A stretch of DNA of 64,000 nucleotides from Notolepis coatsorum (lineage: Eukaryota > Chordata > Actinopteri > Aulopiformes > Paralepididae): assembly GCA_963971535.1 (NCBI GenBank), contig OZ020593.1:21789670-21853669 (forward strand). The letters run 5' to 3'. Of this stretch, positions 14,215 to 64,000 are shown piece by piece. Positions within the stretch are counted from its first letter, which is position 1. Every line of letters starts with the position of its first letter. The translations under genes and the position numbers were made by a program. The notes under the pieces were generated by a model. The model saw nothing but the letters and a program-made list of their open reading frames with translations. It had not been told where the DNA came from and ran no database searches.

Positions 14215-31669
<17,455 letters not shown>

Positions 31670-45500: not shown

Positions 45501-45973
45501 CAATTGTGTGTATTGAGCCGTACTGTACTGTACCCATTCTGCAATCTGTTAATAAAAGTGCATTCATTCATTCATTCACTGTACCTCTTGACCCGGAGAC
45601 TAGATGAGCCACAGCAAGCTTCTTTTGTTGAAACTCTTGTAGTTTGACAACATCCTCTGACAAAAGGTGCCTTTTTGCTAGATGGAAAACAGTTGTCAGT
45701 CAGCAATAATTAGGGTAAATGCGCACATGATTAGCTGGTAGTGGGTGAAGTAAAAAATAACAACTGTGACAGGCTGACTGTGTTCACTCACAACAACATC
45801 ACAAACAACAACACAGGCCATCGGGTTCCAGTAGAAACGCCACACACGTATGCATTCTTACCCCCAATGCTGCACGCCATGCAGTCTGCTTGTAAAGAGC
45901 CAAGAAATAATCCGTTTGAGGGCATATTATGCGGTAATTTGGGGAAACATCTACTAAACCTTCCGAGCGCCAT
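33061..45973 (-). CDS. ptcd2: Pentatricopeptide repeat-containing protein 2, mitochondrial (PTCD2), 10 exons
   Basis: Minus-strand coding exons: 45973-45862, 45677-45585, 45161-45032, 41870-41753, 41124-41046, 40494-40403, 38653-38540, 38236-38162, 37437-37327, 33288-33061. They join to 1152 nt, 383 aa plus stop; the human protein is about 388 aa. The N-terminus (MALGRFSRCFPKL...) is basic and lacks early acidic residues, as for a mitochondrial presequence. Family blocks: LSEDVVKLQEFQQKK, GPLFMRLCYE, RGFFNDWTSFNI, AYSFAVALALRQ and a C-terminal VSRRTLRPIQ. PTCD2 is a matrix PPR protein that in mammals affects processing of the mitochondrial cytochrome b transcript. The intron 7 donor (GTTGGT) is weaker than the others. 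Introns 3, 6 and 9 carry most of the repeats. The exon 6 end is the source of a minisatellite in intron 6. Confidence 0.96.
33395..33662. mobile_element. MITE fragment, copy 4 (PTCD2 intron 9)
   Basis: One arm of the 3945-4430 family (agaccacttttgcagcgtgg, cagagcggagggaccgggag, ctatatcagtgatggctgtc, acatgtagaccacgta). Partial copy. Confidence 0.7.
33665..34620 (+). mobile_element. LINE copy (22.3-kb family) interrupted by an inverted copy of its own 3' tail
   Basis: 33665-33773 and 33906-34407 match the RT C-terminal region of 22281-24152 (ILEANLSCDKMAS, then TLAGALIQGYYDYACTSWY to RNWPL and stop). Between them, 33774-33905 is the same family's 3' end in opposite orientation (gaatgaatgaatg...catcagggtcccc). 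About 14 host bases are missing at the break. The 3' UTR with CCACCC repeats follows to about 34590. Confidence 0.88.
34630..35735 (+). mobile_element. LINE-type 3' region split by a hAT insertion
   Basis: 34630-34954 (ggtgatagggacaccgtata, ccttcggatgagacg, tcgttaaagaaccca) continues at 35633-35735 (agcactttgagtgtctagaa, aagcgctatataaatgtaat), a common fish LINE 3' terminus. The two parts join once the hAT at 34955-35632 is removed. Non-coding. Confidence 0.75.
34955..35632. mobile_element. hAT-like element, CATACCTGTCAAC family, copy 2
   Basis: Ends CATACCTGTCAAC and GTTGACAGCTATG, flanked by a perfect 8-bp duplication GCTACCAG (34947-34954, 35633-35640). 678 bp; inverted relative to 25066-26435, with shared inner segments (gacaggtggcagcagtgtag; cgaaatatcaaatttttt). 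No transposase. Confidence 0.9.
35823..36310. mobile_element. Non-autonomous hAT-like element
   Basis: Ends TAGGGCTGTCCCC and GGGGTCAGCCCTA with a perfect 8-bp duplication GTTTTATT (35815-35822, 36311-36318). Subterminal gtcgacta motifs occur near both ends, with a (TA)n run at about 36199-36224. 488 bp, no ORF. Confidence 0.92.
36599..37050 (+). mobile_element. tRNA-headed SINE, copy 3
   Basis: Head gggcggctaggtggtgcag, B box gggttcgagccc (closest to a tRNA consensus of the four copies), body and A-rich tail. Target duplication attttcttatcc at 36586-36597 and 37052-37063. Confidence 0.9.
37500..38042 (+). mobile_element. LINE 3' end with (AAATAAAG)n tail (PTCD2 intron 8)
   Basis: A T-rich 3' UTR ends with ccccaggaagaatagtcgct, gaggcagtgactaatgggga, then repeated aaataaag. 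This is a common fish LINE terminus. No coding frame. Confidence 0.65.
38262..38470 (-). mobile_element. Reverse copy of the 14.9-kb dispersed repeat
   Basis: acaagtacagtacaacgaaa, taagtttggcatccaacca, then gtacaggtgattaaactgg match 6.0-6.3 and 21.2-21.35 kb. It begins 26 bp upstream of the PTCD2 exon 8 acceptor and overlaps no exon. Confidence 0.65.
39277..40436 (-). repeat. About 58-bp minisatellite carrying the PTCD2 exon 6 splice donor
   Basis: Eleven units (39790-40436, steps of 56-60 bp) plus one detached unit at 39277-39330. On the PTCD2 strand each unit has about 21 nt of exon 6 end (tgccacctgctacaaactg), the donor gtaaga and about 30 nt of intron. The unit at 40377-40436 is the real exon 6 end. 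Most decoys keep GTAAGA; one has GTGAGA (about 39991) and one GTCAGA (about 39824). Confidence 0.93.
39331..39785 (+). mobile_element. LINE 3' fragment inserted in the splice-donor minisatellite
   Basis: It begins inside a minisatellite unit (after ggtggcatgtgacca), encodes a short C-terminal tail (FARTTLKQM...GVKLWNYLHS...) with stop at about 39484, then an AT-rich 3' UTR ending in aaataaaaaactctgaaata. It separates the detached unit at 39277 from the main array. Confidence 0.6.
40700..40970 (+). mobile_element. LINE-like 3' end in PTCD2 intron 5
   Basis: A segment ending aagcatttcactgtaatgta, then tgtgacaaataaaac, a typical fish retroelement terminus. No ORF. Confidence 0.5.
41205..41715. 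mobile_element. Fold-back MITE with internal tandem duplication (PTCD2 intron 4)
   Basis: Termini aaaggaaaactccaacattt and aaatgttggagttttccttt are inverted. The inside holds two tandem palindromes, each with tgtgcatgcagtaggagtag mirrored by ctactcctactgcatgcaca around a gttagcctagcttagcg centre. The element lies between exon 5 and exon 4. Confidence 0.88.
42515..42935. repeat. Compound (TG)n/(TGTC)n microsatellite
   Basis: About 420 bp of tgtgtg with interspersed tctg, tatg and gctg units, including a repeated tgcgtctgtgtacagacgtg block at about 42581 and 42646. Long Cys/Val or His/Thr frames across it are artefacts of the repeat. Confidence 0.95.
43070..44485 (-). mobile_element. LINE remnant with RTE-like RT/C-terminus, plus an unrelated LINE 3' end
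   Basis: 43345-44480 on the minus strand encodes, in several frames, WILKKAFDSVHHESLW, VKQGTA, INTGKTKTMRI, FTYLGATVCKEGG, RTKLRLYKTLVVPVLLYGCE, CLRRILRIQWQDRIST, then KMEDDKTHTEA. This order (palm, thumb, C-terminal domain) is that of RTE-like fish and invertebrate LINEs. Frameshifts and stops show it is dead. 43100-43330 is a separate 3' end shared with 26.5 kb. Confidence 0.75.
44491..44800 (+). repeat. Duplicated end of CACFD1 exon 2 plus its minisatellite
   Basis: gctgctggagtatggatggt, then gtaagtctcac and agtagggatgcactgatac repeat the last 20+ bases of CACFD1 exon 2, its donor and the start of intron 2, followed by the same ctaaaacagggtactggtg minisatellite (44541-44785). Eleven bases between two GTCTC repeats are missing relative to the source. 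It lies in PTCD2 intron 3, antisense to PTCD2. Confidence 0.9.
45285..45580 (+). mobile_element. LINE 3' tail copy adjoining PTCD2 exon 2
   Basis: Forward 3' UTR of the 22.3-kb family (aatgggggaccctgatgtaa, ccattctgcaatctgttaat, (ATTC)n). Its tail ends only about 5 bp from the exon 2 donor (45584), so the insertion abuts the splice site. Confidence 0.8.
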
Positions 45974-46384
45974 GATGCCCCCAGAATGTACCAATAAAAT
46001 GACTGCGGTCAAGTGAGCCGTCTTTTGCTTTTGCGTGGTCAAGTGAGCCGCTCTTGTTTTTCGAGTGCGCGATTAGTTCCAGGTTTACGGTAATGCATTC
46101 AAACAACCCTGGGAGGCTGTTGTAATGAACCGACGTGACTTTTGAACACAGTCTCGGAAGTAGATCTTACAGAAATACTTAATATGACATTGAATGCGCA
46201 TCGAATCAATAGGACGTTTAGTCTAATCAATAGGACGTTTCGTATGTGCAGTATTATTGAACATCGAATCAATAGGACGCGCAGTATATTCGACCACTAA
46301 ACAAAAGCTACAGACAATTCCACAGAGGAACACTTCCGGTGAGGATTTCAAAGTAAAGGATGGCATGTGGTTCATTTCTATTAT
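45974..46384 (-). promoter_or_regulatory. Probable PTCD2 promoter region
   Basis: About 400 bp of unique sequence between the PTCD2 ATG and the satellite. It has a 13-bp direct repeat gtcaagtgagccg (46009, 46039) and three aatcaataggacg repeats (46205-46279). The role is inferred from position. Confidence 0.4.
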
Positions 46385-49300
46385 TTCATAAGTAGTTTAT
46401 TACACTGCCATGTTTGTACTTAATACTTCTCAAGACTACTTGCACAAATAATATTAACTACTTTTACTGTGTACTTTGAGTAATTTGAGTTTCAAAGTCC
46501 TTTTTATAGAACAATGAGTATTTTCGACTAACTTTGATGTGGGATAAAAAAAGATTTTCCCATAAGCACTTTATGAAACTGCCATGGTTGTACTTAGTAC
46601 CTCTTAGACTACTTGTACAAATTATATGAAATATTTTTACTGTGTACTTTTTGAGTAATTTCAGTTTTAAAGTCCTCAGAATCAGCATTTTCGACTAACT
46701 TTGATGTGGGATAAAAAAAGATTTCCCCATAAGCACCTTATGAAACTGCCATGGTTGTACTTAGTACCTCTTAGACTACCTGTACAAATTATATGAAATA
46801 TTTTTACTGTGTACTTTTTGAGTAATTTCAGTTTCAAAGTCCCCAGAATCAGCATTTTCGACTAACTTTGATGTGGGATAAAAAAAGATTTTCCCATAAG
46901 CACCTTATGAAACTGCCATGGTTGTACTTAGTACCTCTTAGACTACTTGTACAAATTATATGAAATATTTTTACTGTGTACTTTTTGAGTAATTTCAGTT
47001 TTAAAGTCCCCAGAATCAGCATTTTCGACTAACTTTGATGTGGGATAAAAAAAGATTTTCCCATAAGCACCTTATGAAACTGCCATGGTTGTACTTAGTA
47101 CCTCTTAGACTACTTGTACAAATTATATGAAATATTTTTACTGTGTACTTTTTGAGTAATTTCAGTTTTAAAGTCCCCAGAATCAGCATTTTCGACTAAC
47201 TTTGATGTGGGATAAAAAAAGATTTTCCCATAAGCACCTTATGAAACTGCCATGGTTGTACTTAGTACCTCTTAGACTACCTGTACAAATTATATGAAAT
47301 ATTTTTACTGTGTACTTTTTGAGTAATTTGAGTTTCAAAGTCCTCAGAATCAGCATTTTCGACTAACTTTGATGTTGGATAAAAACAATTCTTCCCATAA
47401 GCACTTTATGAAACTGCCATGGTTGTACTTAGTACCTCTTAGACTACCTGTACAAATTATATGAAATATTTTTACTGTGTACTTTTTGAGTAATTTCAGT
47501 TTCAAAGTCCTCAGAATCAGCATTTTCGACTAACTTTGATGTGGGATAAAAAAAGATTTTCCCATAAGCACCTTATGAAACTGCCATGGTTGTACTTAGT
47601 ACCTCTTAGACTACTTGTACAAATTATATGAAATATTTTTACTGTGTACTTTTTGAGTAATTTCAGTTTTAAAGTCCTCAGAATCAGCATTTTCGACTAA
47701 CTTTGATGTGGGATAAAAAAAGATTTCCCCATAAGCACCTTATGAAACTGCCATGGTTGTACTTAGTACCTCTTAGACTACCTGTACAAATTATATGAAA
47801 TATTTTTACTGTGTACTTTTTGAGTAATTTCAGTTTCAAAGTCCCCAGAATCAGCATTTTCGACTAACTTTGATGTGGGATAAAAAAAGATTTTCCCATA
47901 AGCACCTTATGAAACTGCCATGGTTGTACTTAGTACCTCTTAGACTACCTGTACAAATTATATGAAATATTTTTACTGTGTACTTTTTGAGTAATTTCAG
48001 TTTCAAAGTCCCCAGAATCAGCATTTTCGACTAACTTTGATGTGGGATAAAAAAAGATTTTCCCATAAGCACCTTATGAAACTGCCATGGTTGTACTTAG
48101 TACCTCTTAGACTACGTGTACAAATTATATGAAATATTTTTACTGTGTACTTTTTGAGTAATTTGAGTTTCAAAGTCCCCAGAATCAGCATTTTCGACTA
48201 ACTTTGATGTGGGATAAAAAAAGATTTTCCCATAAGCACCTTATGAAACTGCCATGGTTGTACTTAGTACCTCTTAGACTACCTGTACAAATTATATGAA
48301 ATATTTTTACTGTGTACTTTTTGAGTAATTTGAGTTTCAAAGTCCTCAGAATCAGCATTTTCGACTAACTTTGATGTTGGATAAAAACAATTCTTCCCAT
48401 AAGCACTTTATGAAACTGCCATGGTTGTACTTAGTACCTCTTAGACTACGTGTACAAATTATATGAAATATTTTTACTGTGTACTTTTTGAGTAATTTGA
48501 GTTTCAAAGTCCCCAGAATCAGCATTTTCGACTAACTTTGATGTGGGATAAAAAAAGATTTTCCCATAAGCACCTTATGAAACTGCCATGGTTGTACTTA
48601 GTACCTCTTAGACTACCTGTACAAATTATATGAAATATTTTTACTGTGTACTTTTTGAGTAATTTGAGTTTCAAAGTCCCCAGAATCAGCATTTTCGACT
48701 AACTTTGATGTGGGATAAAAAAAGATTTTCCCATAAGCACCTTATGAAACTGCCATGGTTGTACTTAGTACCTCTTAGACTACCTGTACAAATTATATGA
48801 AATATTTTTACTGTGTACTTTTTGAGTAATTTCAGTTTCAAAGTCCCCAGAATCAGCATTTTCGACTAACTTTGATGTGGGATAAAAAAAGATTTTCCCA
48901 TAAGCACCTTATGAAACTGCCATGGTTGTACTTAGTACCTCTTAGACTACGTGTACAAATTATATGAAATATTTTTACTGTGTACTTTTTGAGTAATTTG
49001 AGTTTCAAAGTCCCCAGAATCAGCATTTTCGACTAACTTTGATGTGGGATAAAAAAAGATTTTCCCATAAGCACCTTATGAAACTGCCATGGTTGTACTT
49101 AGTACCTCTTAGACTACCTGTACAAATTATATGAAATATTTTTACTGTGTACTTTTTGAGTAATTTGAGTTTCAAAGTCCTCAGAATCAGCATTTTCGAC
49201 TAACTTTGATGTTGGATAAAAACAATTCTTCCCATAAGCACTTTATGAAACTGCCATGGTTGTACTTAGTACCTCTTAGACTACCTGTACAAATTATATG

Positions 49301-52300
49301 AAATATTTTTACTGTGTACTTTTTGAGTAATTTGAGTTTCAAAGTCCCCAGAATCAGCATTTTCGACTAACTTTGATGTGGGATAAAAAAAGATTTTCCC
49401 ATAAGCACCTTATGAAACTGCCATGGTTGTACTTAGAACCTCTTAGACTACCTGTACAAATTATATGAAATATTTTTACTGTGTACTTTTTGAGTAATTT
49501 CAGTTTCAAAGTCCCCAGAATCAGCATTTTCGACTAACTTTGATGTGGGATAAAAAAAGATTTTCCCATAAGCACTTTATGAAACTGCCATGGTTGTACT
49601 TAGTACCTCTTAGACTACCTGTACAAATTATATGAAATATTTTTACTGTGTACTTTTTGAGTAATTTGAGTTTCAAAGTCCCCAGAATCAGCATTTTCGA
49701 CTAACTTTGATGTGGGATAAAAAAAGATTTTCCCATAAGCACCTTATGAAACTGCCATGGTTGTACTTAGTACCTCTTAGACTACGTGTACAAATTATAT
49801 GAAATATTTTTACTGTGTACTTTGAGTAATTTCAGTTTCAAAGTCCCCAGAATCAGCATTTTCGACTAACTTTGATGTGGGATAAAAAAAGATTTTCCCA
49901 TAAGCACCTTATGAAACTGCCATGGTTGTACTTAGTACCTCTTAGACTACTTGTACAAATTATATGAAATATTTTTACTGTGTACTTTTTGAGTAATTTC
50001 AGTTTTAAAGTCCCCAGAATCAGCATTTTCGACTAACTTTGATGTGGGATAAAAAAAGATTTTCCCATAAGCACCTTATGAAACTGCCATGGTTGTACTT
50101 AGTACCTCTTAGACTACTTGTACAAATTATATGAAATATTTTTACTGTGTACTTTTTGAGTAATTTCAGTTTTAAAGTCCCCAGAATCAGCATTTTCGAC
50201 TAACTTTGATGTGGGATAAAAAAAGATTTTCCCATAAGCACCTTATGAAACTGCCATGGTTGTACTTAGTACCTCTTAGACTACCTGTACAAATTATATG
50301 AAATATTTTTACTGTGTACTTTTTGAGTAATTTGAGTTTCAAAGTCCCCAGAATCAGCATTTTCGACTAACTTTGATGTGGGATAAAAAAAGATTTTCCC
50401 ATAAGCACTTGATGAAACTGCCATGGTTGTACTTAGTACCTCTTAGACTACCTGTACAAATTATATGAAATATTTTTACTGTGTACTTTTTGAGTAATTT
50501 GAGTTTCAAAGTCCTCAGAATCAGCATTTTCGACTAACTTTGATGTTGGATAAAAACAATTCTTCCCATAAGCACTTTATGAAACTGCCATGGTTGTACT
50601 TAGTACCTCTTAGACTACGTGTACAAATTATATGAAATATTTTTACTGTGTACTTTTTGAGTAATTTGAGTTTCAAAGTCCCCAGAATCAGCATTTTCGA
50701 CTAACTTTGATGTGGGATAAAAAAAGATTTTCCCATAAGCACCTTATGAAACTGCCATGGTTGTACTTAGTACCTCTTAGACTACCTGTACAAATTATAT
50801 GAAATATTTTTACTGTGTACTTTTTGAGTAATTTGAGTTTCAAAGTCCCCAGAATCAGCATTTTCGACTAACTTTGATGTGGGATAAAAAAAGATTTTCC
50901 CATAAGCACCTTATGAAACTGCCATGGTTGTACTTAGTACCTCTTAGACTACCTGTACAAATTATATGAAATATTTTTACTGTGTACTTTTTGAGTAATT
51001 TCAGTTTCAAAGTCCCCAGAATCAGCATTTTCGACTAACTTTGATGTGGGATAAAAAAAGATTTTCCCATAAGCACCTTATGAAACTGCCATGGTTGTAC
51101 TTAGTACCTCTTAGACTACGTGTACAAATTATATGAAATATTTTTACTGTGTACTTTTTGAGTAATTTGAGTTTCAAAGTCCCCAGAATCAGCATTTTCG
51201 ACTAACTTTGATGTGGGATAAAAAAAGATTTTCCCATAAGCACCTTATGAAACTGCCATGGTTGTACTTAGTACCTCTTAGACTACCTGTACAAATTATA
51301 TGAAATATTTTTACTGTGTACTTTTTGAGTAATTTGAGTTTCAAAGTCCTCAGAATCAGCATTTTCGACTAACTTTGATGTTGGATAAAAACAATTCTTC
51401 CCATAAGCACTTTATGAAACTGCCATGGTTGTACTTAGTACCTCTTAGACTACCTGTACAAATTATATGAAATATTTTTACTGTGTACTTTTTGAGTAAT
51501 TTGAGTTTCAAAGTCCCCAGAATCAGCATTTTCGACTAACTTTGATGTGGGATAAAAAAAGATTTTCCCATAAGCACCTTATGAAACTGCCATGGTTGTA
51601 CTTAGAACCTCTTAGACTACCTGTACAAATTATATGAAATATTTTTACTGTGTACTTTTTGAGTAATTTCAGTTTCAAAGTCCCCAGAATCAGCATTTTC
51701 GACTAACTTTGATGTGGGATAAAAAAAGATTTTCCCATAAGCACTTTATGAAACTGCCATGGTTGTACTTAGTACCTCTTAGACTACCTGTACAAATTAT
51801 ATGAAATATTTTTACTGTGTACTTTTTGAGTAATTTGAGTTTCAAAGTCCCCAGAATCAGCATTTTCGACTAACTTTGATGTGGGATAAAAAAAGATTTT
51901 CCCATAAGCACCTTATGAAACTGCCATGGTTGTACTTAGTACCTCTTAGACTACGTGTACAAATTATATGAAATATTTTTACTGTGTACTTTTTGAGTAA
52001 TTTCAGTTTCAAAGTCCCCAGAATCAGCATTTTCGACTAACTTTGATGTGGGATAAAAAAAGATTTTCCCATAAGCACCTTATGAAACTGCCATGGTTGT
52101 ACTTAGTACCTCTTAGACTACTTGTACAAATTATATGAAATATTTTTACTGTGTACTTTTTGAGTAATTTCAGTTTTAAAGTCCCCAGAATCAGCATTTT
52201 CGACTAACTTTGATGTGGGATAAAAAAAGATTTTCCCATAAGCACCTTATGAAACTGCCATGGTTGTACTTAGTACCTCTTAGACTACTTGTACAAATTA

Positions 52301-55300
52301 TATGAAATATTTTTACTGTGTACTTTTTGAGTAATTTCAGTTTTAAAGTCCCCAGAATCAGCATTTTCGACTAACTTTGATGTGGGATAAAAAAAGATTT
52401 TCCCATAAGCACCTTATGAAACTGCCATGGTTGTACTTAGTACCTCTTAGACTACCTGTACAAATTATATGAAATATTTTTACTGTGTACTTTTTGAGTA
52501 ATTTGAGTTTCAAAGTCCCCAGAATCAGCATTTTCGACTAACTTTGATGTGGGATAAAAAAAGATTTTCCCATAAGCACTTGATGAAACTGCCATGGTTG
52601 TACTTAGTACCTCTTAGACTACCTGTACAAATTATATGAAATATTTTTACTGTGTACTTTTTGAGTAATTTGAGTTTCAAAGTCCTCAGAATCAGCATTT
52701 TCGACTAACTTTGATGTTGGATAAAAACAATTCTTCCCATAAGCACTTTATGAAACTGCCATGGTTGTACTTAGTACCTCTTAGACTACCTGTACAAATT
52801 ATATGAAATATTTTTACTGTGTACTTTTTGAGTAATTTGAGTTTCAAAGTCCTCAGAATCAGCATTTTCGACTAACTTTGATGTTGGATAAAAACAATTC
52901 TTCCCATAAGCACTTTATGAAACTGCCATGGTTGTACTTAGTACCTCTTAGACTACGTGTACAAATTATATGAAATATTTTTACTGTGTACTTTTTGAGT
53001 AATTTCAGTTTTAAAGTCCCCAGAATCAGCATTTTCGACTAACTTTGATGTGGGATAAAAAAAGATTTTCCCATAAGCACCTTATGAAACTGCCATGGTT
53101 GTACTTAGTACCTCTTAGACTACTTGTACAAATTATATGAAATATTTTTACTGTGTACTTTTTGAGTAATTTGAGTTTCAAAGTCCTCAGAATCAGCATT
53201 TTCGACTAACTTTGATGTTGGATAAAAACAATTCTTCCCATAAGCACTTTATGAAACTGCCATGGTTGTACTTAGTACCTCTTAGACTACCTGTACAAAT
53301 TATATGAAATATTTTTACTGTGTACTTTTTGAGTAATTTGAGTTTCAAAGTCCCCAGAATCAGCATTTTCGACTAACTTTGATGTGGGATAAAAAAAGAT
53401 TTTCCCATAAGCACCTTATGAAACTGCCATGGTTGTACTTAGTACCTCTTAGACTACTTGTACAAATTATATGAAATATTTTTACTGTGTACTTTTTGAG
53501 TAATTTCAGTTTTAAAGTCCCCAGAATCAGCATTTTCGACTAACTTTGATGTGGGATAAAAAAAGATTTTCCCATAAGCACCTTATGAAACTGCCATGGT
53601 TGTACTTAGTACCTCTTAGACTACTTGTACAAATTATATGAAATATTTTTACTGTGTACTTTTTGAGTAATTTCAGTTTTAAAGTCCCCAGAATCAGCAT
53701 TTTCGACTAACTTTGATGTGGGATAAAAAAAGATTTTCCCATAAGCACCTTATGAAACTGCCATGGTTGTACTTAGTACCTCTTAGACTACCTGTACAAA
53801 TTATATGAAATATTTTTACTGTGTACTTTTTGAGTAATTTCAGTTTCAAAGTCCCCAGAATCAGCATTTTCGACTAACTTTGATGTGGGATAAAAAAAGA
53901 TTTTCCCATAAGCACCTTATGAAACTGCCATGGTTGTACTTAGTACCTCTTAGACTACCTGTACAAATTATATGAAATATTTTTACTGTGTACTTTTTGA
54001 GTAATTTGAGTTTCAAAGTCCTCAGAATCAGCATTTTCGACTAACTTTGATGTTGGATAAAAACAATTCTTCCCATAAGCACTTTATGAAACTGCCATGG
54101 TTGTACTTAGTACCTCTTAGACTACGTGTACAAATTATATGAAATATTTTTACTGTGTACTTTTTGAGTAATTTGAGTTTCAAAGTCCCCAGAATCAGCA
54201 TTTTCGACTAACTTTGATGTGGGATAAAAAAAGATTTTCCCATAAGCACCTTATGAAACTGCCATGGTTGTACTTAGTACCTCTTAGACTACCTGTACAA
54301 ATTATATGAAATATTTTTACTGTGTACTTTTTGAGTAATTTGAGTTTCAAAGTCCCCAGAATCAGCATTTTCGACTAACTTTGATGTGGGATAAAAAAAG
54401 ATTTTCCCATAAGCACCTTATGAAACTGCCATGGTTGTACTTAGTACCTCTTAGACTACCTGTACAAATTATATGAAATATTTTTACTGTGTACTTTTTG
54501 AGTAATTTCAGTTTCAAAGTCCCCAGAATCAGCATTTTCGACTAACTTTGATGTGGGATAAAAAAAGATTTTCCCATAAGCACCTTATGAAACTGCCATG
54601 GTTGTACTTAGTACCTCTTAGACTACGTGTACAAATTATATGAAATATTTTTACTGTGTACTTTTTGAGTAATTTGAGTTTCAAAGTCCCCAGAATCAGC
54701 ATTTTCGACTAACTTTGATGTGGGATAAAAAAAGATTTTCCCATAAGCACCTTATGAAACTGCCATGGTTGTACTTAGTACCTCTTAGACTACCTGTACA
54801 AATTATATGAAATATTTTTACTGTGTACTTTTTGAGTAATTTGAGTTTCAAAGTCCTCAGAATCAGCATTTTCGACTAACTTTGATGTTGGATAAAAACA
54901 ATTCTTCCCATAAGCACTTTATGAAACTGCCATGGTTGTACTTAGTACCTCTTAGACTACCTGTACAAATTATATGAAATATTTTTACTGTGTACTTTTT
55001 GAGTAATTTGAGTTTCAAAGTCCCCAGAATCAGCATTTTCGACTAACTTTGATGTGGGATAAAAAAAGATTTTCCCATAAGCACCTTATGAAACTGCCAT
55101 GGTTGTACTTAGAACCTCTTAGACTACCTGTACAAATTATATGAAATATTTTTACTGTGTACTTTTTGAGTAATTTCAGTTTCAAAGTCCCCAGAATCAG
55201 CATTTTCGACTAACTTTGATGTGGGATAAAAAAAGATTTTCCCATAAGCACTTTATGAAACTGCCATGGTTGTACTTAGTACCTCTTAGACTACCTGTAC

Positions 55301-55615
55301 AAATTATATGAAATATTTTTACTGTGTACTTTTTGAGTAATTTGAGTTTCAAAGTCCCCAGAATCAGCATTTTCGACTAACTTTGATGTGGGATAAAAAA
55401 AGATTTTCCCATAAGCACCTTATGAAACTGCCATGGTTGTACTTAGTACCTCTTAGACTACCTGTACAAATTATATGAAATATTTTTACTGTGTACTTTT
55501 TGAGTAATTTCAGTTTCAAAGTCCCCAGAATCAGCATTTTCGACTAACTTTGATGTGGGATAAAAAAAGATTTTCCCATAAGCACTTTATGAAACTGCCA
55601 TGGTTGTACTTAGTA
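46385..55615 (+). repeat. 167-bp satellite array, forward, about 55 monomers plus one divergent monomer
   Basis: The anchor gccatgg recurs from 46581 to 55597 (9016 bp), i.e. 54 steps of 167 bp with a net loss of 2 bp (a tt deletion near 49822). The first unit (46385-46560) is divergent. Two main monomer types: A (gatgtgggataaaaaaagat) and B (gatgttggataaaaacaatt). B units sit at spacings of 6, 5, 8, 5, 8, 1, 2, 5, 5 monomers. The monomer holds the dyads CATAAG-cac-CTTATG and GTAC-tta-GTAC. No ORF. Confidence 0.97.
48373..52713 (+). repeat. Two tandem 13-mer higher-order repeats (about 2170 bp each)
   Basis: Block 48373-50542 recurs as 50542-52713. Both carry B monomers at the same spacing (5 then 8), the private variant acttagaacc (49431 and 51600) and cacttgatgaaac (about 50406 and 52577). 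The lengths, 2169 and 2171 bp, differ only by the 2-bp deletion. A partial third copy follows at about 54049-55615, with acttagaacc at 55107. Confidence 0.9.
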
Positions 55616-57500
55616 CTTGGGTTTAGATTTTTCCTTTTTCCTTTTAATTAACATTTCTATTTCGAGGTCGATTCCATGCCGTATGAGTAAAATTTTAACA
55701 TTTGGTTATTACTCTGGATATAAAATTAACATAGACAAAACAGAGGCACTGGCTATTGGGGGGAACATTTCTCAACAGGCCATATCCCTCTTCCCTTTTA
55801 AATGGCCAAGTACTGGTATTAAATATTTAGGCATACCATAACACCCACATTTGACCAATTTGTATAAAGCCAAGTACACGAGGCTTATCAATAAGATCAG
55901 AGAGGACGTGGATAGATGGACTGTTCTGCCTCTTTCCTTGATAGGGAGGGTGGAAATAATCAGAATGAACATACTCCCTAGACTACTGTATCCGTTTCTA
56001 ATGCTGGCCATCCCAATTGGTAACCACACTTTTACTAAATTTACTAAATCAATTACTCTCACGTTTAATATGGCAGGGGAAATTACCTAGTGCGTTTTAA
56101 AACATTACAGCTGGCCAAGCATGGTCGAGATTTACGATACAAATATGGAGAGCGGTCCAGAAAGAGTTCAGTTTGCCTTTAACATCGGGCCTGACCTCAA
56201 TTGGTTTCATTGGGGACTTTACACCATCAATTCTGGATGCAGGATTCAGTGGATGGAGGACAAAGGGTCTGAAATTTGTTTACCAATTTATTCACTCCGG
56301 CCAGCTTAAATCCTTCCAACAACTCAGAGTGGAGTTTAGCCTTCCTAGTACTGACTTTTTCAGATGTCTCCAATTAAGGATTTTTTTTGAAAACCAGGAA
56401 GATTGGGACAAAAAATTCGACACCCTTCTCCAATAGAACGCTTTATAGCTAATATACAAATTGATGCTTCAAAACAAAAAATTCGTTCTAAATTATATCA
56501 AAACCTAATATCAATGAACCCCAACGACTCGCTATACATTAAGTTGAAGTGGGAGGCTGAGCTCCAACAGGAGATCTCACAAGAAGAGGAGTGGTTCGAT
56601 GTTTGTACTGAATTACATAAGGTGACTAATTCTAACTCCTGGAGAGAATATATATGGAAGGTCATTAGTATGTTTTTCAAGACCCCCTTATTGACTGCTA
56701 AAGCAGGTACAACTCCCACAAGCCAATGCTGGAGGGGATGTGGTGAACAAATTAACCATACATTTTCTGGACATGCCCAAAATTATGTCACTTCTGGGTA
56801 CGGTGACCAGGTGTCCCCCTTTTGGTTGTACTGTTTCCACCATTTGAGACCGCGTCCCACGTATTGAGAGGATGTCCCTCTTTTCGAAGCAAAAATCGAA
56901 CACAAGACATTCCTGTCAAGTGATAAAGTTTGAATATTTAAAACAGATGTTAGGTGGTAACAAGCCGGCTGCCAGTGCCAAGATGAATGTGGAGAGATAT
57001 AATTCTGTATTTAATTTGTATTTATTTTGATTTAACCTTAATCTATTCGGTGAAGACGAGTTATTCTAATACAAAAATTTACATTATCTATCTGTCCCAC
57101 CAAAATCTTACTGTTGTCCTGCTTTTGGACTTTTTGCATTCAGGGATGTAAAAAAAAGTATTCGACATGGACATCCCACAAGATTTCAAAACTGCCATCC
57201 TCGGAGTCATAACGGAGGGCATTGAGGGAAGGAAAAGTGTGTATCTTCTTCAAATACTGTTAACTGCTGCCAAGAAAATTATCACACAGTCCCCCAACAC
57301 ATAACCAATGGCTAAACAAAGTTAAAGAAATTCAGGACATGGAGAGGATGACTCATCTGATCAGGTTGCAAGGTGAACAGTTCGATATAAAGTGGGCTTG
57401 TATAGAGCGTATAGGGCTATAAAGGCACTGCATTATATTTATTTTCATCTTATTTCCCATTTGATTGTCATTTTCTTTTAAAAATGTGTTTGATTTATCT
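55616..57500 (+). mobile_element. Decayed L1-like LINE fragment in the satellite spacer
   Basis: Broken frames encode SGYKINIDKTEALAI, FKWPSTGIKYLGIP, LINKIREDVDRWTVLPLSLI, GRVEIIRMNILPRLLYPF, then QFIHSGQLKSFQQLRVEFSL, WREYIWKVISMFFKTP and CWRGCGEQINHTF. This is the order of the RT thumb and C-terminal zinc-knuckle region of fish L1-type elements. Stops near 55839 and elsewhere show decay. 56795-56940 seems foreign. An L1-like 3' part (MERMTHLIRLQGE-like) lies at 57330-57400. Confidence 0.8.
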
Positions 57501-57504
57501 CACC

Positions 57505-57564
57505 AGTAATACTTACCAATGTACAGTTTTGCTTGTAGTGTTCCCCACCCACCCCGCCTAACCA

Positions 57565-57601
<37 letters not shown>

Positions 57602-57860
57602 ACCCCACCTACCCAACCTCCTCCAATGTACGTCTTTTTTACGTCAAATGTATATACTCTCTTTTCTGGACTCAACAGTACTGTATTTTTTTATCTGCAA
57701 ATTCTGGTGTACCTGTTTTTCTTTTTCTTTTTATGTTTCCCCCACGCCCCTTCCCCAAGCATAGCAGTCTCGGTACAGACATGATGTTAAACGTGTTGTA
57801 AAGTATATCTGCATATCTGTACTGTCTTGATTTTGTGCTGAATAAAAAAATATGATGAAC
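57505..57860 (+). mobile_element. LINE 3' UTR copy with long C tract
   Basis: ccaatgtacagttttgcttg, a CCACCC-rich part with a C run of about 33 (57568-57600), then aatgtatatactc: matches the 3' UTR of the element at 22.3-24.7 kb. Confidence 0.7.
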
Positions 57861-58428
57861 ATTTCTATTTCACAATGACATTGCAATTCTAAATGATTGA
57901 ATCAATACAATAGTTTTAGCAAAAAGTCATGAACTTGTAGTTGTGGAATGACTGTTTTTGATTATCTAGCACAAATGAACAGGGTTGGTTCATTATACTT
58001 TTAGACTGCATTGTCAAAATTTCACGAAACACAGTGAAAATTATTTTTGGATGTATTGCAAGAAGATATTTTAACTTTTACCTTTAAAACAGTATAACTG
58101 TAGTAGCACGTGCCAATATTAGAGTTTTTATAGTTTGTTTTTTAACTTTTGTTTTGGCTTTTGATGTTCAACTTACCTAGGTTGCTTTGATGTTGCAATA
58201 AAAACACACATACAAGCATCTTTGAAATTAGCATGATGTATTTGAAATACAAAATTACTATTTACACATATAATATCAATAAACGTAGATACTTATAACA
58301 TATATTTGAAAATAAAATGAATATGAACACCTTTAACTATATATATACATTCTACTAAAAGTAAGTAGTCATGCCAATAATAAAAATATGAATATCCAAC
58401 TAAACTACATAGATAAGCATAGGAGATG
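57861..58428. other. AT-rich spacer, nothing recognised
   Basis: No coding frame, no repeat shared with the rest of the window and no terminal inverted repeat seen. Confidence 0.5.
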
Positions 58429-59726
58429 AGCAAATATTAAAAACAAAAAATGAAAGCTTATCAACTGAAACAGTCATTCAGTGATTGTGTCTATGTATGA
58501 CAAAAACAGGCAAACAGATTGTTAAGTGTAAGTACAGTATTAATGTTTGCATGTAACTGCACTTTAACTGTTCCACAGTAAGAGGGCGCTATAGGCGTAA
58601 GGAGACGCAGCTATTGTAACTGACGTCAGGTATCAGGTATAAGGGATTGTTCCCTGCCCCTCTGTCTCTCTCTCTCTCTAGCTCTCATGGAGAGCAGGTC
58701 TAGTGGCGCAAATGTACATATTAAATAAACCACGCCAGTTAAGGCTAAAGGAGAAAATATTAAAAACAAAAAATGAAAGCTTATCAACTGAAACACTGTC
58801 ATTCAGTGATTGTGTTTATGTATGACAAAAACAGGCAAACAGATTGTTAAGTGTAAGTACAGTATTAATGTTTGCATGTAACTGCACTTTAACTGTTCCA
58901 CAGTAAGAGGGCGCTATAGGCGTAAGGAGACGCAGCTATTGTAACTGACGTCAGGTATCAGGTATAAGGGATTGTTCCCTGCCCCTCTGTCTCTCTCTCT
59001 CTCTAGCTCTCATGGAGAGCAGGTCTAGTGGCGCAAATGTACATATTAAATAAACCACGCCAGTTAAGGCTAAAGGAGAAAATATTAAAAACAAAAAATG
59101 AAAGCTTATCAACTGAAACAGTCATTCAGTGATTGTGTCTATGTATGACAAAAACAGGCAAACAGATTGTTAAGTGTAAGTACAGTATTAATGTTTGCAT
59201 GTAACTGCACTTTAACTGTTCCACAGTAAGAGGGCGCTATAGGCGTAAGGAGACGCAGCTATTGTAACTGACGTCAGGTATCAGGTATAAGGGATTGTTC
59301 CCTGCCCCTCTGTCTCTCTCTCTCTCTAGCTCTCATGGAGAGCAGTCTAGTGGCGCAAATGTACATATTAAATAAACCACGCCAGTTAAGGCTAAAGGAG
59401 AAAATATTAAAAACAAAAAATGAAAGCTTATCAACTGAAACACTGTCATTCAGTGATTGTGTTTATGTATGACAAAAACAGGCAAACAGATTGTTAAGTG
59501 TAAGTACAGTATTAATGTTTGCATGTAACTGCACTTTAACTGTTCCACAGTAAGAGGGCGCTATAGGCGTAAGGAGACGCAGCTATTGTAACTGACGTCA
59601 GGTATCAGGTATAAGGGATTGTTCCCTGCCCCTCTGTCTCTCTCTCTCTCTAGCTCTCATGGAGAGCAGGTCTAGTGGCGCAAATGTACATATTAAATAA
59701 ACCACGCCAGTTAAGGCTAAAGGAGA
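58429..59726 (+). repeat. Four tandem copies of a 323-325 bp promoter-like unit (A-B-A-B)
   Basis: The anchor gagggcgctatagg recurs at 58582, 58907, 59230 and 59554. Copies 1 and 3 read gaaacagtcattcag and gtctatg; copies 2 and 4 read gaaacactgtcattcag and gtttatg. Each unit has a CRE palindrome TGACGTCA, a CT tract, a short ATG frame, AATAAA and a G+C-richer middle. Composition is LTR-like but no gag/pol or primer-binding site was seen. Confidence 0.9.
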
Positions 59727-59992
59727 CCTCGTCGTCATGACCAGTTATTGCTCCCCATGTGACTCTGTCAACACAGATTTTCCCCCCTTTTTCTTAATTA
59801 TTCTGCCCTAGTTGCAGAGACAGCAATTCCAATTGCTTCCTGGCTTCCTGGCTTCTTGGAGTTGGTCCTGATTCACCCCCAGGCACTGCTCATGGAACCA
59901 TCTTTCACAGGTGTCACACTGTAGCTGTAAAATGAAATGAGTCACCATCAAATCTGATACATCTTGTCATCGGAAATGATGAAGTAATGAAG
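59727..59992. other. Unique spacer before the inverted satellite
   Basis: No gene or repeat recognised. Confidence 0.5.
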
Positions 59993-62900
59993 TGCAATAG
60001 AGTGCTTATGGGAAAATCTTTTTTTTATCCCACATCAAAGTTAGTAGAAAATGCTGATTCTGGGGACTTTGAAACTCAAATTACTCAAAAAGTACACAGT
60101 AAAAATATTTCATATAATTTGTACAAGTAGTCTAAGAGGTACTAAGTACAACCATGGCAGTTTCATAAGGTGCTTATGGGAAAATCTTTTTTTATCCCAC
60201 ATCAAAGTTAGTCGAAAATGCTGATTCTGGGGACTTTAAAACTGAAATTACTCAAAAAGTACACAGTAAAAATATTTCATATAATTTGTACAAGTAGTCT
60301 AAGAGGTACTAAGTACAACCATGGCAGTTTCATAAGGTGCTTATGGGAAAATCTTTTTTTATCCCACATCAAAGTTAGTCGAAAATGCTGATTCTGGGGA
60401 CTTTGAAACTGAAATTACTCAAAAAGTACACAGTAAAAATATTTCATATAATTTGTACAGGTAGTATAAGAGGTACTAAGTACAACCATGGCAGTTTCAT
60501 AAGGTGCTTATGGGAAAATCTTTTTTTATCCCACATCAAAGTTAGTAGAAAATGCTGATTCTGGGGACTTTGAAACTCAAATTACTCAAAAAGTACACAG
60601 TAAAAATATTTCATATAATTTGTACACGTAGTCTAAGAGGTACTAAGTACAACCATGGCAGTTTCATAAGGTGCTTATGGGAAAATCTTTTTTTATCCCA
60701 CATCAAAGTTAGTCGAAAATGCTGATTCTGGGGACTTTGAAACTGAAATTACTCAAAAAGTACACAGTAAAAATATTTCATATAATTTGTACAGGTAGTC
60801 TAAGAGGTACTAAGTACAACCATGGCAGTTTCATAAGGTGCTTATGGGAAAATCTTTTTTTATCCCACATCAAAGTTAGTCGAAAATGCTGATTCTGGGG
60901 ACTTTGAAACTCAAATTACTCAAAAAGTACACAGTAAAAATATTTCATATAATTTGTACAAGTAGTCTAAGAGGTACTAAGTACAACCATGGCAGTTTCA
61001 TAAGGTGCTTATGGGAAAATCTTTTTTTATCCCACATCAAAGTTAGTCGAAAATGCTGATTCTGAGGACTTTGAAACTCAAATTACTCAAAAAGTACACA
61101 GTAAAAATATTTCATATAATTTGTACAGGTAGTCTAAGAGGTACTAAGTACAACCATGGCAGTTTCATAAAGTGCTTATGGGAAGAATTGTTTTTATCCA
61201 ACATCAAAGTTAGTCGAAAATGCTGATTCTGAGGACTTTGAAACTGAAATTACTCAAAAAGTACACAGTAAAAATATTTCATATAATTTGTACAGGTAGT
61301 CTAAGAGGTACTAAGTACAACCATGGCAGTTTCATAAAGTGCTTATGGGAAGAATTGTTTTTATCCAACATCAAAGTTAGTCGAAAATGCTGATTCTGAG
61401 GACTTTGAAACTCAAATTACTCAAAAAGTACACAGTAAAAATATTTCATATAATTTGTACAAGTAGTCTAAGAGGTACTAAGTACAACCATGGCAGTTTC
61501 ATAAGGTGCTTATGGGAAAATCTTTTTTTATCCCACATCAAAGTTAGTCGAAAATGCTGATTCTGGGGACTTTGAAACTGAAATTACTCAAAAAGTACAC
61601 AGTAAAAATATTTCATATAATTTGTACACGTAGTCTAAGAGGTACTAAGTACAACCATGGCAGTTTCATAAGGTGCTTATGGGAAGAATTGTTTTTATCC
61701 AACATCAAAGTTAGTCGAAAATGCTGATTCTGAGGACTTTGAAACTCAAATTACTCAAAAAGTACACAGTAAAAATATTTCATATAATTTGTACAGGTAG
61801 TCTAAGAGGTACTAAGTACAACCATGGCAGTTTCATAAAGTGCTTATGGGAAGAATTGTTTTTATCCAACATCAAAGTTAGTCGAAAATGCTGATTCTGA
61901 GGACTTTGAAACTCAAATTACTCAAAAAGTACACAGTAAAAATATTTCATATAATTTGTACAGGTAGTCTAAGAGGTACTAAGTACAACCATGGCAGTTT
62001 CATCAAGTGCTTATGGGAAAATCTTTTTTTATCCCACATCAAAGTTAGTCGAAAATGCTGATTCTGGGGACTTTGAAACTCAAATTACTCAAAAAGTACA
62101 CAGTAAAAATATTTCATATAATTTGTACAGGTAGTCTAAGAGGTACTAAGTACAACCATGGCAGTTTCATCAAGTGCTTATGGGAAAATCTTTTTTTATC
62201 CCACATCAAAGTTAGTCGAAAATGCTGATTCTGGGGACTTTGAAACTCAAATTACTCAAAAAGTACACAGTAAAAATATTTCATATAATTTGTACAGGTA
62301 GTCTAAGAGGTACTAAGTACAACCATGGCAGTTTCATAAGGTGCTTATGGGAAAATCTTTTTTTATCCCACATCAAAGTTAGTCGAAAATGCTGATTCTG
62401 GGGACTTTGAAACTGAAATTACTCAAAAAGTACACAGTAAAAATATTTCATATAATTTGTACAGGTAGTCTAAGAGGTACTAAGTACAACCATGGCAGTT
62501 TCATAAGGTGCTTATGGGAAAATCTTTTTTTATCCCACATCAAAGTTAGTCGAAAATGCTGATTCTGGGGACTTTGAAACTCAAATTACTCAAAAAGTAC
62601 ACAGTAAAAATATTTCATATAATTTGTACACGTAGTCTAAGAGGTACTAAGTACAACCATGGCAGTTTCATAAAGTGCTTATGGGAAGAATTGTTTTTAT
62701 CCAACATCAAAGTTAGTCGAAAATGCTGATTCTGAGGACTTTGAAACTCAAATTACTCAAAAAGTACACAGTAAAAATATTTCATATAATTTGTACAGGT
62801 AGTCTAAGAGGTACTAAGTACAACCATGGCAGTTTCATAAGGTGCTTATGGGAAAATCTTTTTTTATCCCACATCAAAGTTAGTCGAAAATGCTGATTCT

Positions 62901-64000
62901 GGGGACTTTGAAACTGAAATTACTCAAAAAGTACACAGTAAAAATATTTCATATAATTTGTACAGGTAGTCTAAGAGGTACTAAGTACAACCATGGCAGT
63001 TTCATAAGGTGCTTATGGGAAAATCTTTTTTTATCCCACATCAAAGTTAGTCGAAAATGCTGATTCTGGGGACTTTGAAACTCAAATTACTCAAAAAGTA
63101 CACAGTAAAAATATTTCATATAATTTGTACACGTAGTCTAAGAGGTACTAAGTACAACCATGGCAGTTTCATAAAGTGCTTATGGGAAGAATTGTTTTTA
63201 TCCAACATCAAAGTTAGTCGAAAATGCTGATTCTGAGGACTTTGAAACTCAAATTACTCAAAAAGTACACAGTAAAAATATTTCATATAATTTGTACAGG
63301 TAGTCTAAGAGGTACTAAGTACAACCATGGCAGTTTCATAAAGTGCTTATGGGAAGAATTGTTTTTATCCAACATCAAAGTTAGTCGAAAATGCTGATTC
63401 TGAGGACTTTGAAACTCAAATTACTCAAAAAGTACACAGTAAAAATATTTCATATAATTTGTACAGGTAGTCTAAGAGGTACTAAGTACAACCATGGCAG
63501 TTTCATCAAGTGCTTATGGGAAAATCTTTTTTTATCCCACATCAAAGTTAGTCGAAAATGCTGATTCTGGGGACTTTGAAACTCAAATTACTCAAAAAGT
63601 ACACAGTAAAAATATTTCATATAATTTGTACAGGTAGTCTAAGAGGTACTAAGTACAACCATGGCAGTTTCATAAGGTGCTTATGGGAAAATCTTTTTTT
63701 ATCCCACATCAAAGTTAGTCGAAAATGCTGATTCTGGGGACTTTGAAACTCAAATTACTCAAAAAGTACACAGTAAAAATATTTCATATAATTTGTACAG
63801 GTAGTCTAAGAGGTACTAAGTACAACCATGGCAGTTTCATAAGGTGCTTATGGGAAAATCTTTTTTTATCCCACATCAAAGTTAGTCGAAAATGCTGATT
63901 CTGGGGACTTTGAAACTGAAATTACTCAAAAAGTACACAGTAAAAATATTTCATATAATTTGTACAGGTAGTCTAAGAGGTACTAAGTACAACCATGGCA
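59993..64000 (-). repeat. 167-bp satellite array, inverted, at least 24 monomers
   Basis: Reverse complement of the array at 46.4-55.6 kb. The anchor ccatggc runs from 60152 to 63993 = 3841 bp, exactly 23 steps of 167 bp. Both A and B monomers are present; B units have spacings 1, 2, 1, 5, 3, 1, unlike the forward array. The array begins in mid-monomer at 59993 and continues beyond the window. Confidence 0.97.

What the first reader, a model, noticed from the sequence alone, without database searches (positions are those of the whole stretch)
46385..64000. Inverted 167-bp satellite arrays with near-perfect period beside a gene promoter
Seen: 54 forward and 23 inverted steps of exactly 167 bp, with one 2-bp deletion in the forward array and no other net length change in 9 kb plus 3.8 kb, separated by a 4.4-kb spacer. 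A 167-bp monomer is close to a chromatosome length. Inference: homogenised recently, or held in register by nucleosome phasing. It starts only about 400 bp from the PTCD2 start codon, so it could be an edge of centromeric or heterochromatic DNA. I do not know this monomer.
Basis: partly seen in the sequence, partly recalled or inferred. Interest (0 to 1): 0.8.

Follow-up and report, generated by a model that had tools for sequence, protein, structure and literature searches.

The report
Young palindromic transposon with satellite-like arms
What looked like an inverted satellite beside a gene is one copy of a recently active jumping element, about 26 kb long, whose two ends are mirror-image arrays of a 167-base repeat; it sits 28 bases in front of the start codon of a gene read as PTCD2.

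Summary
The two opposed 167-bp arrays are the arms of one foldback-type DNA transposon, 26,259 bp long (window 46002 to 7.9 kb... beyond the window end, C27:21861929), flanked by an 8-bp target duplication, ATAAAATG. The genome holds 307 copies of the 34-bp terminus (up to 2 mismatches); the 100 listed include 37 convergent pairs, 1.7-31 kb. Of 17 elements read at both ends, 11 have perfect 8-bp duplications, 5 match at 6-7 of 8, 1 at 3. All 21 array ends compared carry the same outer sequence. Ends of the two main haplotypes differ on average by under 1 base in 395, so the family moved recently. About 7,800 monomers, about 25 per terminus, need no free satellite. A few copies carry a transposase-like gene without a Pfam match plus Ulp1-protease and PHD-finger exons. 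Ulp1 and 8-bp duplications suggest Zisupton; its KDZ profile found nothing (control also silent). Monomer order and a flipped shared centre indicate unequal exchange and recombination between arms. Nucleosome register is not supported: 45 of 811 steps differ from 167 bp. New variant of a known kind.

The parts
45994..46001 (.). 8-bp target-site duplication ATAAAATG (left copy; right copy at L009 8931-8938, beyond the window)
46002..46396 (+). outer end of the left terminal inverted repeat (395 bp, haplotype 'B'); holds two direct copies of a GGTCAAGTGAGCCG unit (46007, 46037) and three of an AATCAATAGGACG unit (within 46199-46291)
   Evidence: sharp boundary shared by 17 termini with unrelated flanks; repeats; haplotype
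46397..46570 (+). diverged first monomer, 174 bp, about 90% identical to the commonest monomer, nearly the same at the 21 ends compared
46571..55616 (+). left arm: 167-bp tandem array
55617..60001 (.). loop between the arms: LINE remnant (about 55617-57850, L1-like by eye), 325-bp tandem repeats (58428-59726), PHD exon; same as the end part of the loop of the C27:118M element in reverse, 98.3-98.7% identical; Ulp1 exons absent
59808..59966 (-). open frame with the PHD-finger exon of the element's gene, a remnant here
   Evidence: Pfam PF00628 E 4.2e-7; frame
60002..64000 (-). right arm: inverted 167-bp array, continuing to C27:21861533, then a 395-bp outer end (haplotype 'A') that stops at C27:21861929
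45863..45973 (-). first coding exon (end by eye) of the neighbouring gene read as PTCD2; start codon 45973-45971

Best explanation
The finding is one copy of a young, foldback-type (palindromic) cut-and-paste DNA transposon. SHOWN: copies have two inverted outer ends, typically 395 bp, with a sharp terminus ACTGCGGTCAAGTG, followed inward by arrays of the 167-bp monomer in mirror orientation, with or without a loop; insertions are flanked by 8-bp target duplications; a few copies hold exons that encode Ulp1-protease and PHD-finger domains and, further upstream, a transposase-like frame. INFERRED: the transposase made by rare gene-bearing copies binds the outer ends, cuts the element out and inserts it; most copies are non-autonomous derivatives that lost the gene when the arms joined. 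The arrays grow and shrink by unequal exchange between identical monomers, and the two arms pair (fold back) and recombine, which flips the centre and carries monomer types from one arm to the other. The 167-bp regularity is therefore a mark of recent copying, not of chromatin. The superfamily is most likely Zisupton-like (Ulp1, 8-bp duplication), not proven. The window copy landed 28 bp upstream of the start codon read as PTCD2.
For: Shared sharp outer terminus with unrelated flanks at 17 array ends; 8-bp duplications perfect in 11 of 17 two-ended elements, 6-7 of 8 in 5, 3 of 8 in 1; 152 + 155 termini genome-wide against 0 + 0 for the reversed control; 37 convergent pairs against 1 divergent and 0 same-strand neighbours within 40 kb among the 100 places listed; plus array running into minus array with under 10 bp between at 8 of 18 loci fetched and in the 3 short copies fetched whole; one centre identical at four loci on four contigs, so finished palindromes were copied to new places; gene exons between paired termini at C27:118M and, by coordinates, at C8:75.36M, C6:190.5M and C21:71.66M; mean differences of 0.86 (A, 14 ends) and 0.22 (B, 9 ends) bases in 395 within haplotypes; 29 distinct monomers among 125, with recurring blocks of several monomers; the shared centre lies in opposite orientation to the A and B-type ends in L019 and L025.
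Against: No movement was observed; activity is inferred from near-identity of copies. One of 17 elements (C30) lacks a duplication and five are imperfect. 26 of the 100 listed termini were not paired by my rule (at least one, C21:151567194, has its partner beyond the listed part). A third haplotype (3 ends) differs by 4 bases on average, so not all copies are equally young. The transposase role rests on position and motifs read by eye; no Pfam match up to E 10, and the KDZ profile did not match the genome (control silent too). That the arrays hold transposase sites is not supported: the outer end and the commonest monomer share no exact word above 9 bases. End polarity is mixed: the gene's 5' side is next to a B end in the C43 copy, the Ulp1 side next to an A end at C27:118M, and the L026 element has A at both ends.
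Confidence: 0.93

Rival explanations
1. A conventional satellite DNA (centromeric or heterochromatic) with an inverted junction, of which this is an edge.
For: Long tandem arrays with high identity and multi-monomer blocks look satellite-like.
Against: Arrays lie inside element ends with target duplications on 16 contigs in a capped search; 7,820 monomer hits genome-wide are about 25 per terminus, about 0.04% of the genome. Caveat: collapsed or unassembled centromeric arrays would be missed.
Confidence: 0.03
2. The period is held at 167 bp by selection for nucleosome/chromatosome phasing.
Against: Copies of one young source would show the same regularity; 188-, 165-, 155-, 168- and 311-bp steps are tolerated; the older copy L056 has steps of 175, 167, 168, 285 and 175.
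Confidence: 0.04
3. The opposed arrays are an assembly artefact (fold-back chimeric reads).
For: Fold-back reads are a known artefact of long-read sequencing (recalled).
Against: Many loci, different centres, target duplications on both sides, and different haplotypes at the two ends in 8 of 11 elements typed.
Confidence: 0.02
4. The element is a foldback transposon of the Mutator/Phantom kind rather than Zisupton-like (a rival for the superfamily, not for the foldback reading).
For: Most foldback elements have been placed in Mutator, and Tetris has 8-10 bp duplications (PMC4079207, passages read); the transposase motifs, read by eye, could be MULE-like too.
Against: No Mutator/MULE Pfam profile matched the spliced transposase exons at E up to 10; the Ulp1 exons fit what I recall of fish Zisupton.
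Confidence: 0.3

Closest known systems
Tetris, foldback transposon of Drosophila virilis (PMC4079207; passages read)
   Same: Foldback layout, tandem repeats (TIR-220) inside the inverted ends, 8-10 bp target duplications, link between transposon arms and satellite-like DNA.
   Different: Tetris has only three structurally complete copies and no known transposase; here 307 termini (about 150 copies if all are paired), arms up to about 12 kb of 167-bp repeat, and gene-bearing copies. No free satellite was seen here, whereas Tetris gave rise to one.
Galileo, P-superfamily foldback-like transposon of Drosophila (PMC4168063, PMC3688188; passages read)
   Same: Long inverted ends lengthened by internal tandem repeats; 7-8 bp duplications; copies without the gene; ectopic recombination between copies.
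   Different: In D. willistoni only the longest copy has tandem repeats in its arms; Galileo's repeats hold transposase sites, whereas here no shared exact word above 9 bases links outer end and monomer; no THAP or other Pfam match here.
Zisupton / KDZ transposons (8-bp duplications: PMC12730594, passages; Ulp1 domain and fish origin: recalled from the Boehne et al. abstract, which is cited in PMC7599744)
   Same: 8-bp duplication; many-exon gene with an Ulp1 protease domain towards its end.
   Different: No KDZ profile match (control silent); PHD finger after Ulp1; satellite-like arms of kilobases instead of 99-bp subterminal inverted repeats (the 99 bp is recalled).

Membership tests
Foldback-type DNA transposon (structural class) | Long terminal inverted repeats that make up most of the element, with internal tandem repeats | tested here: met
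Foldback-type DNA transposon (structural class) | Target-site duplication on insertion | tested here: met
   11 of 17 perfect 8-bp, 5 at 6-7 of 8, 1 at 3 of 8
Foldback-type DNA transposon (structural class) | Dispersed, separately inserted copies | tested here: met
   152 + 155 termini, control 0 + 0; 37 convergent pairs in the 100 places listed
Zisupton / KDZ superfamily | 8-bp target-site duplications | tested here: met
Zisupton / KDZ superfamily | Ulp1 (SUMO-protease-like) domain in the encoded gene (recalled for fish Zisupton) | tested here: met
   PF02902 E 4.8e-5, 23.7 bits against a cut-off of 20.7, on exons spliced by eye
Zisupton / KDZ superfamily | KDZ transposase domain (PF18758) | tested here: inconclusive
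   no match in the genome (nothing rang in the control genomes either); spliced transposase exons without any Pfam match
Mutator / Phantom superfamily | MULE-type transposase domain | tested here: inconclusive
   no Pfam match at E up to 10; motif resemblance by eye only
Centromeric satellite | Large arrays gathered in centromeres, independent of mobile-element ends | tested here: not met
   (capped); unassembled arrays cannot be seen
Centromeric satellite | CENP-A or heterochromatin enrichment | not testable with these tools
   no chromatin data

The most novel reading that the evidence does not exclude
A separate lineage of DNA transposon, with a transposase outside described domain families and an Ulp1-PHD tail, for which kilobase-long satellite arms are an inherent part: an array stands before the gene in the gene-bearing copy at C43, arrays are present in an older diverged copy, and the arms are kept alike by fold-back recombination. 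It would be a mobile palindromic satellite factory that was active very recently and scatters palindromes of up to tens of kilobases, at least once to within 28 bp of a start codon.
Probability: 0.3. Interest if true: 0.75.

Novelty: new variant of a known kind. Interest (0 to 1): 0.6.

Why it matters
Tandem repeats that look like an in-place satellite turn out to be carried about by a transposon, which gives a direct view of how satellite-like arrays can be seeded anywhere, here a few bases from a start codon. Because gene-bearing and gene-less copies, short and long arms, and ready-made palindromes coexist and many are nearly identical, the family could make the origin and upkeep of foldback arms testable in an animal genome of fish type; the listings of my paper searches showed no such case in a vertebrate. 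Long palindromes are also known as sites of breakage (recalled), so a family with 307 termini may matter for genome stability.

Tried and rejected
Free satellite: of 21 array ends compared, all carry the outer sequence; 17 reach the terminus, 1 is cut by the end of its stretch and 3 are truncated (L018 and both ends of L021). L016, the remaining locus, had no array end in its stretch. Nucleosome register: not supported by step lengths. Mirror-copied arms: monomer order differs between arms in the four elements tested, so the arms are not simple copies of each other. Fixed polarity of A and B ends: held for window, C27:118M and L024 (LINE side B), but L026 has A at both ends, the C43 copy has B on the gene's 5' side, and L019 and L025 disagree. 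KDZ profile: no match. Transposase sites in the monomer: no shared exact word above 9 bases (one outer end against the commonest monomer). I supposed that the gene on the far side of the insertion is MRPS27, sharing a promoter with PTCD2; not supported, since the MRP-S27 profile matches lie on C24 at 111.3 Mb. The PTCD2 name could not be confirmed by Pfam or PDB. Species not established. Repbase, reads and chromatin data were not available. Rows dropped: 3 of 24 ends outside 380-410 bp (L020 1724, L041 542, L042 261) were left out of the haplotype comparison.

Full report
What was claimed and what is there. The window holds a forward 167-bp array at 46397-55616 and an inverted one from 60002 to the window end. 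Counting with an anchor, the forward array has 55 steps: 53 of 167, one of 174 and one of 165 bp; the inverted array has 22 steps, all 167.

The window holds part of a larger unit. It lies at G000:C27:21789670-21853669 of a 3.42-Gb genome. The inverted array continues to C27:21861533 (L009 8534). I fetched 10 kb at each of 18 further loci that hold the monomer. In 8 of the 18 a plus array runs straight into a minus array with under 10 bp between them; the three short copies fetched later do the same. Of 21 outer ends lined up, all carry the same sequence next to the first monomer. Going outward, 17 stop at exactly the same base, ACTGCGGTCAAGTG, with unrelated DNA beyond; one was cut by the end of its stretch and three are truncated. 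In the window this terminus is at 46002, and the mirror terminus is at C27:21861929, which gives an element of 26,259 bp.

It inserts. At the window copy the 8 bases ATAAAATG stand on both sides. For 17 elements read at both ends, 11 have a perfect 8-bp duplication, 5 match at 6 or 7 of 8, and one (C30) at 3 of 8. Eleven of the 17 came from the array loci and six were picked from the terminus list. By eye the duplications share no consensus.

How many. The 34-bp terminus with up to 2 mismatches occurs 152 times forward and 155 reverse; the reversed control gives 0 and 0. The tool lists only 100 places; among these, 37 adjacent pairs are convergent and within 40 kb (74 of 100 places), 1 pair is divergent, none same-strand; sizes 1,731-30,940 bp, median 10,527. 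The other 26 places were unpaired by this rule; some may have a partner beyond the listed part, as C21:151567194 has. A 33-bp monomer pattern with up to 2 mismatches occurs 3,430 + 4,390 times, control 0 + 0: about 25 per terminus, about 1.3 Mb, 0.04% of the genome. The assembly therefore has no need of a free satellite, though collapsed or unassembled arrays cannot be excluded.

How old. Thirty outer ends (3 of the 24 found left out for length, 9 added) fall into haplotypes. Two ends of haplotype A (14 ends) differ on average by 0.86 bases of 395, of B (9 ends) by 0.22, of B' (3 ends) by 0, of a fourth (3 ends) by 4.0; one end is single. By recalled vertebrate rates the A and B groups are well under a million years old; the rate is not from a call. 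Of 11 elements typed at both ends, 8 have one A and one B or B' end, 3 have two A-like ends.

How the arms behave. The window's 125 complete monomers are only 29 distinct sequences; blocks of several monomers recur, and 10 types occur in both arms, but the order differs between arms. Three other elements tested also differ in order between arms, with 8, 4 and 3 shared types. This is what unequal exchange plus some exchange between arms would leave. A palindromic centre identical in L013, L015, L019 and L025, on four contigs, shows that a finished palindrome was itself copied to new places. In L019 the order is A-end, centre, B-end; in L025 it is B'-end, centre, A-end. That flip is best explained by recombination between the paired arms (inference). 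Across the loci examined, 766 of 811 steps are 167 bp; the others include 155, 165, 166, 168, 188 and 311, so length is not strictly held. An older copy (L056, C8:74.87 Mb) has monomers 0.88-0.92 identical to the young type with steps of 175, 167, 168 and 175, and one step of 285: arrays were already present in an older lineage.

The loop and the gene. In the window the loop (55617-60001) is a LINE remnant (by eye), four 325-bp repeats and a PHD exon. It is 98.3-98.7% identical, in reverse, to the end part of the loop of the element at C27:118369501-118388731. That element has the duplication CACTCGTT, arrays of 2.9 and 6.1 kb, and a 9.4-kb loop whose exons, spliced by eye, match Peptidase_C48/Ulp1 (E 4.8e-5) and PHD (E 7.6e-7), both over the curated cut-offs. 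Six places hold the first Ulp1 exon. In the copy at C43:57.98 Mb the sequence upstream of Ulp1 is kept, and contains a 408-aa open frame with DATG, CDG and CxxH-like motifs, which I read, by eye, as a transposase. Neither the frame nor 607 aa of exons spliced by eye matches any Pfam family, its one PDB match is at E 1.6, and the KDZ profile finds nothing in the genome, with a silent control. Parts of the frame occur at 8 places (19 matches); two, on C43, are full-length, identical and face each other. One, at C8:75357000, lies between paired termini. In the C43 copy at least 6 kb of array stand before the gene, 1.9 kb beyond it were not read, and the terminus follows at C43:58001615.

Best reading. 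A young foldback-type cut-and-paste transposon with few gene-bearing and many gene-less copies. Shown: ends, duplications, copy number, near-identity, gene exons within elements. Inferred: that the gene product moves them, that arm pairing causes the flips, and that the superfamily is Zisupton-like. A Mutator/Phantom origin is the main alternative for the superfamily; most foldbacks have been placed there (PMC4079207, passages). Galileo's internal repeats hold transposase sites (PMC3688188, passages); I found no shared site here.

The neighbour gene. The insertion point is 28 bp upstream of an ATG (minus strand 45973) of an exon read as PTCD2. I could not confirm the name by profile or PDB. 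Whether expression is changed is unknown.

Novelty. Foldback transposons with tandem repeats in their arms are known from flies and other organisms. The listings of my paper searches showed no such element in a fish or other vertebrate, but the library is incomplete, I opened only a few papers, and Repbase was not available. Hence: new variant of a known kind.

Noticed in passing
window 58428-59726; L029 about 160-2430: A 325-bp tandem repeat inside the element's loop, four copies in the window and visibly more in the C27:118M copy; its copy number changes between copies as that of the 167-bp arrays does.
   Followed up: partly
L027 17-2968 (C1:146M element): A 983-aa open frame, by eye a LINE-type reverse transcriptase, sits in the loop directly at the end of the array, so retrotransposons seem to insert into these elements.
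   Followed up: no
window 22275-24152 and 33856-34407: A 625-aa open frame that looks like a LINE reverse transcriptase and a partial near-copy of its end.
   Followed up: no
C43:57942641-57943864 and C43:57982880-57984103: Two identical transposase-like frames facing each other about 39 kb apart: a recent inverted duplication or two neighbouring insertions.
   Followed up: no
reverse complement of L057+L058, 12313-13497: Upstream of the transposase-like frame a 395-aa open frame made largely of a 27-aa tandem repeat.
   Followed up: no
window 28842-29699, 39786-40422, 41275-41658: Other minisatellites: 43 bp x 20, 59 bp x 10.9, 201 bp x 1.9.
   Followed up: no
L009 9145-9203: On the far side of the insertion a short frame starting with ATG GCA GCG, about 0.2 kb beyond the target duplication, could be the start of a divergent gene; the MRP-S27 profile matches lie on C24, so it is probably not MRPS27.
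   Followed up: partly
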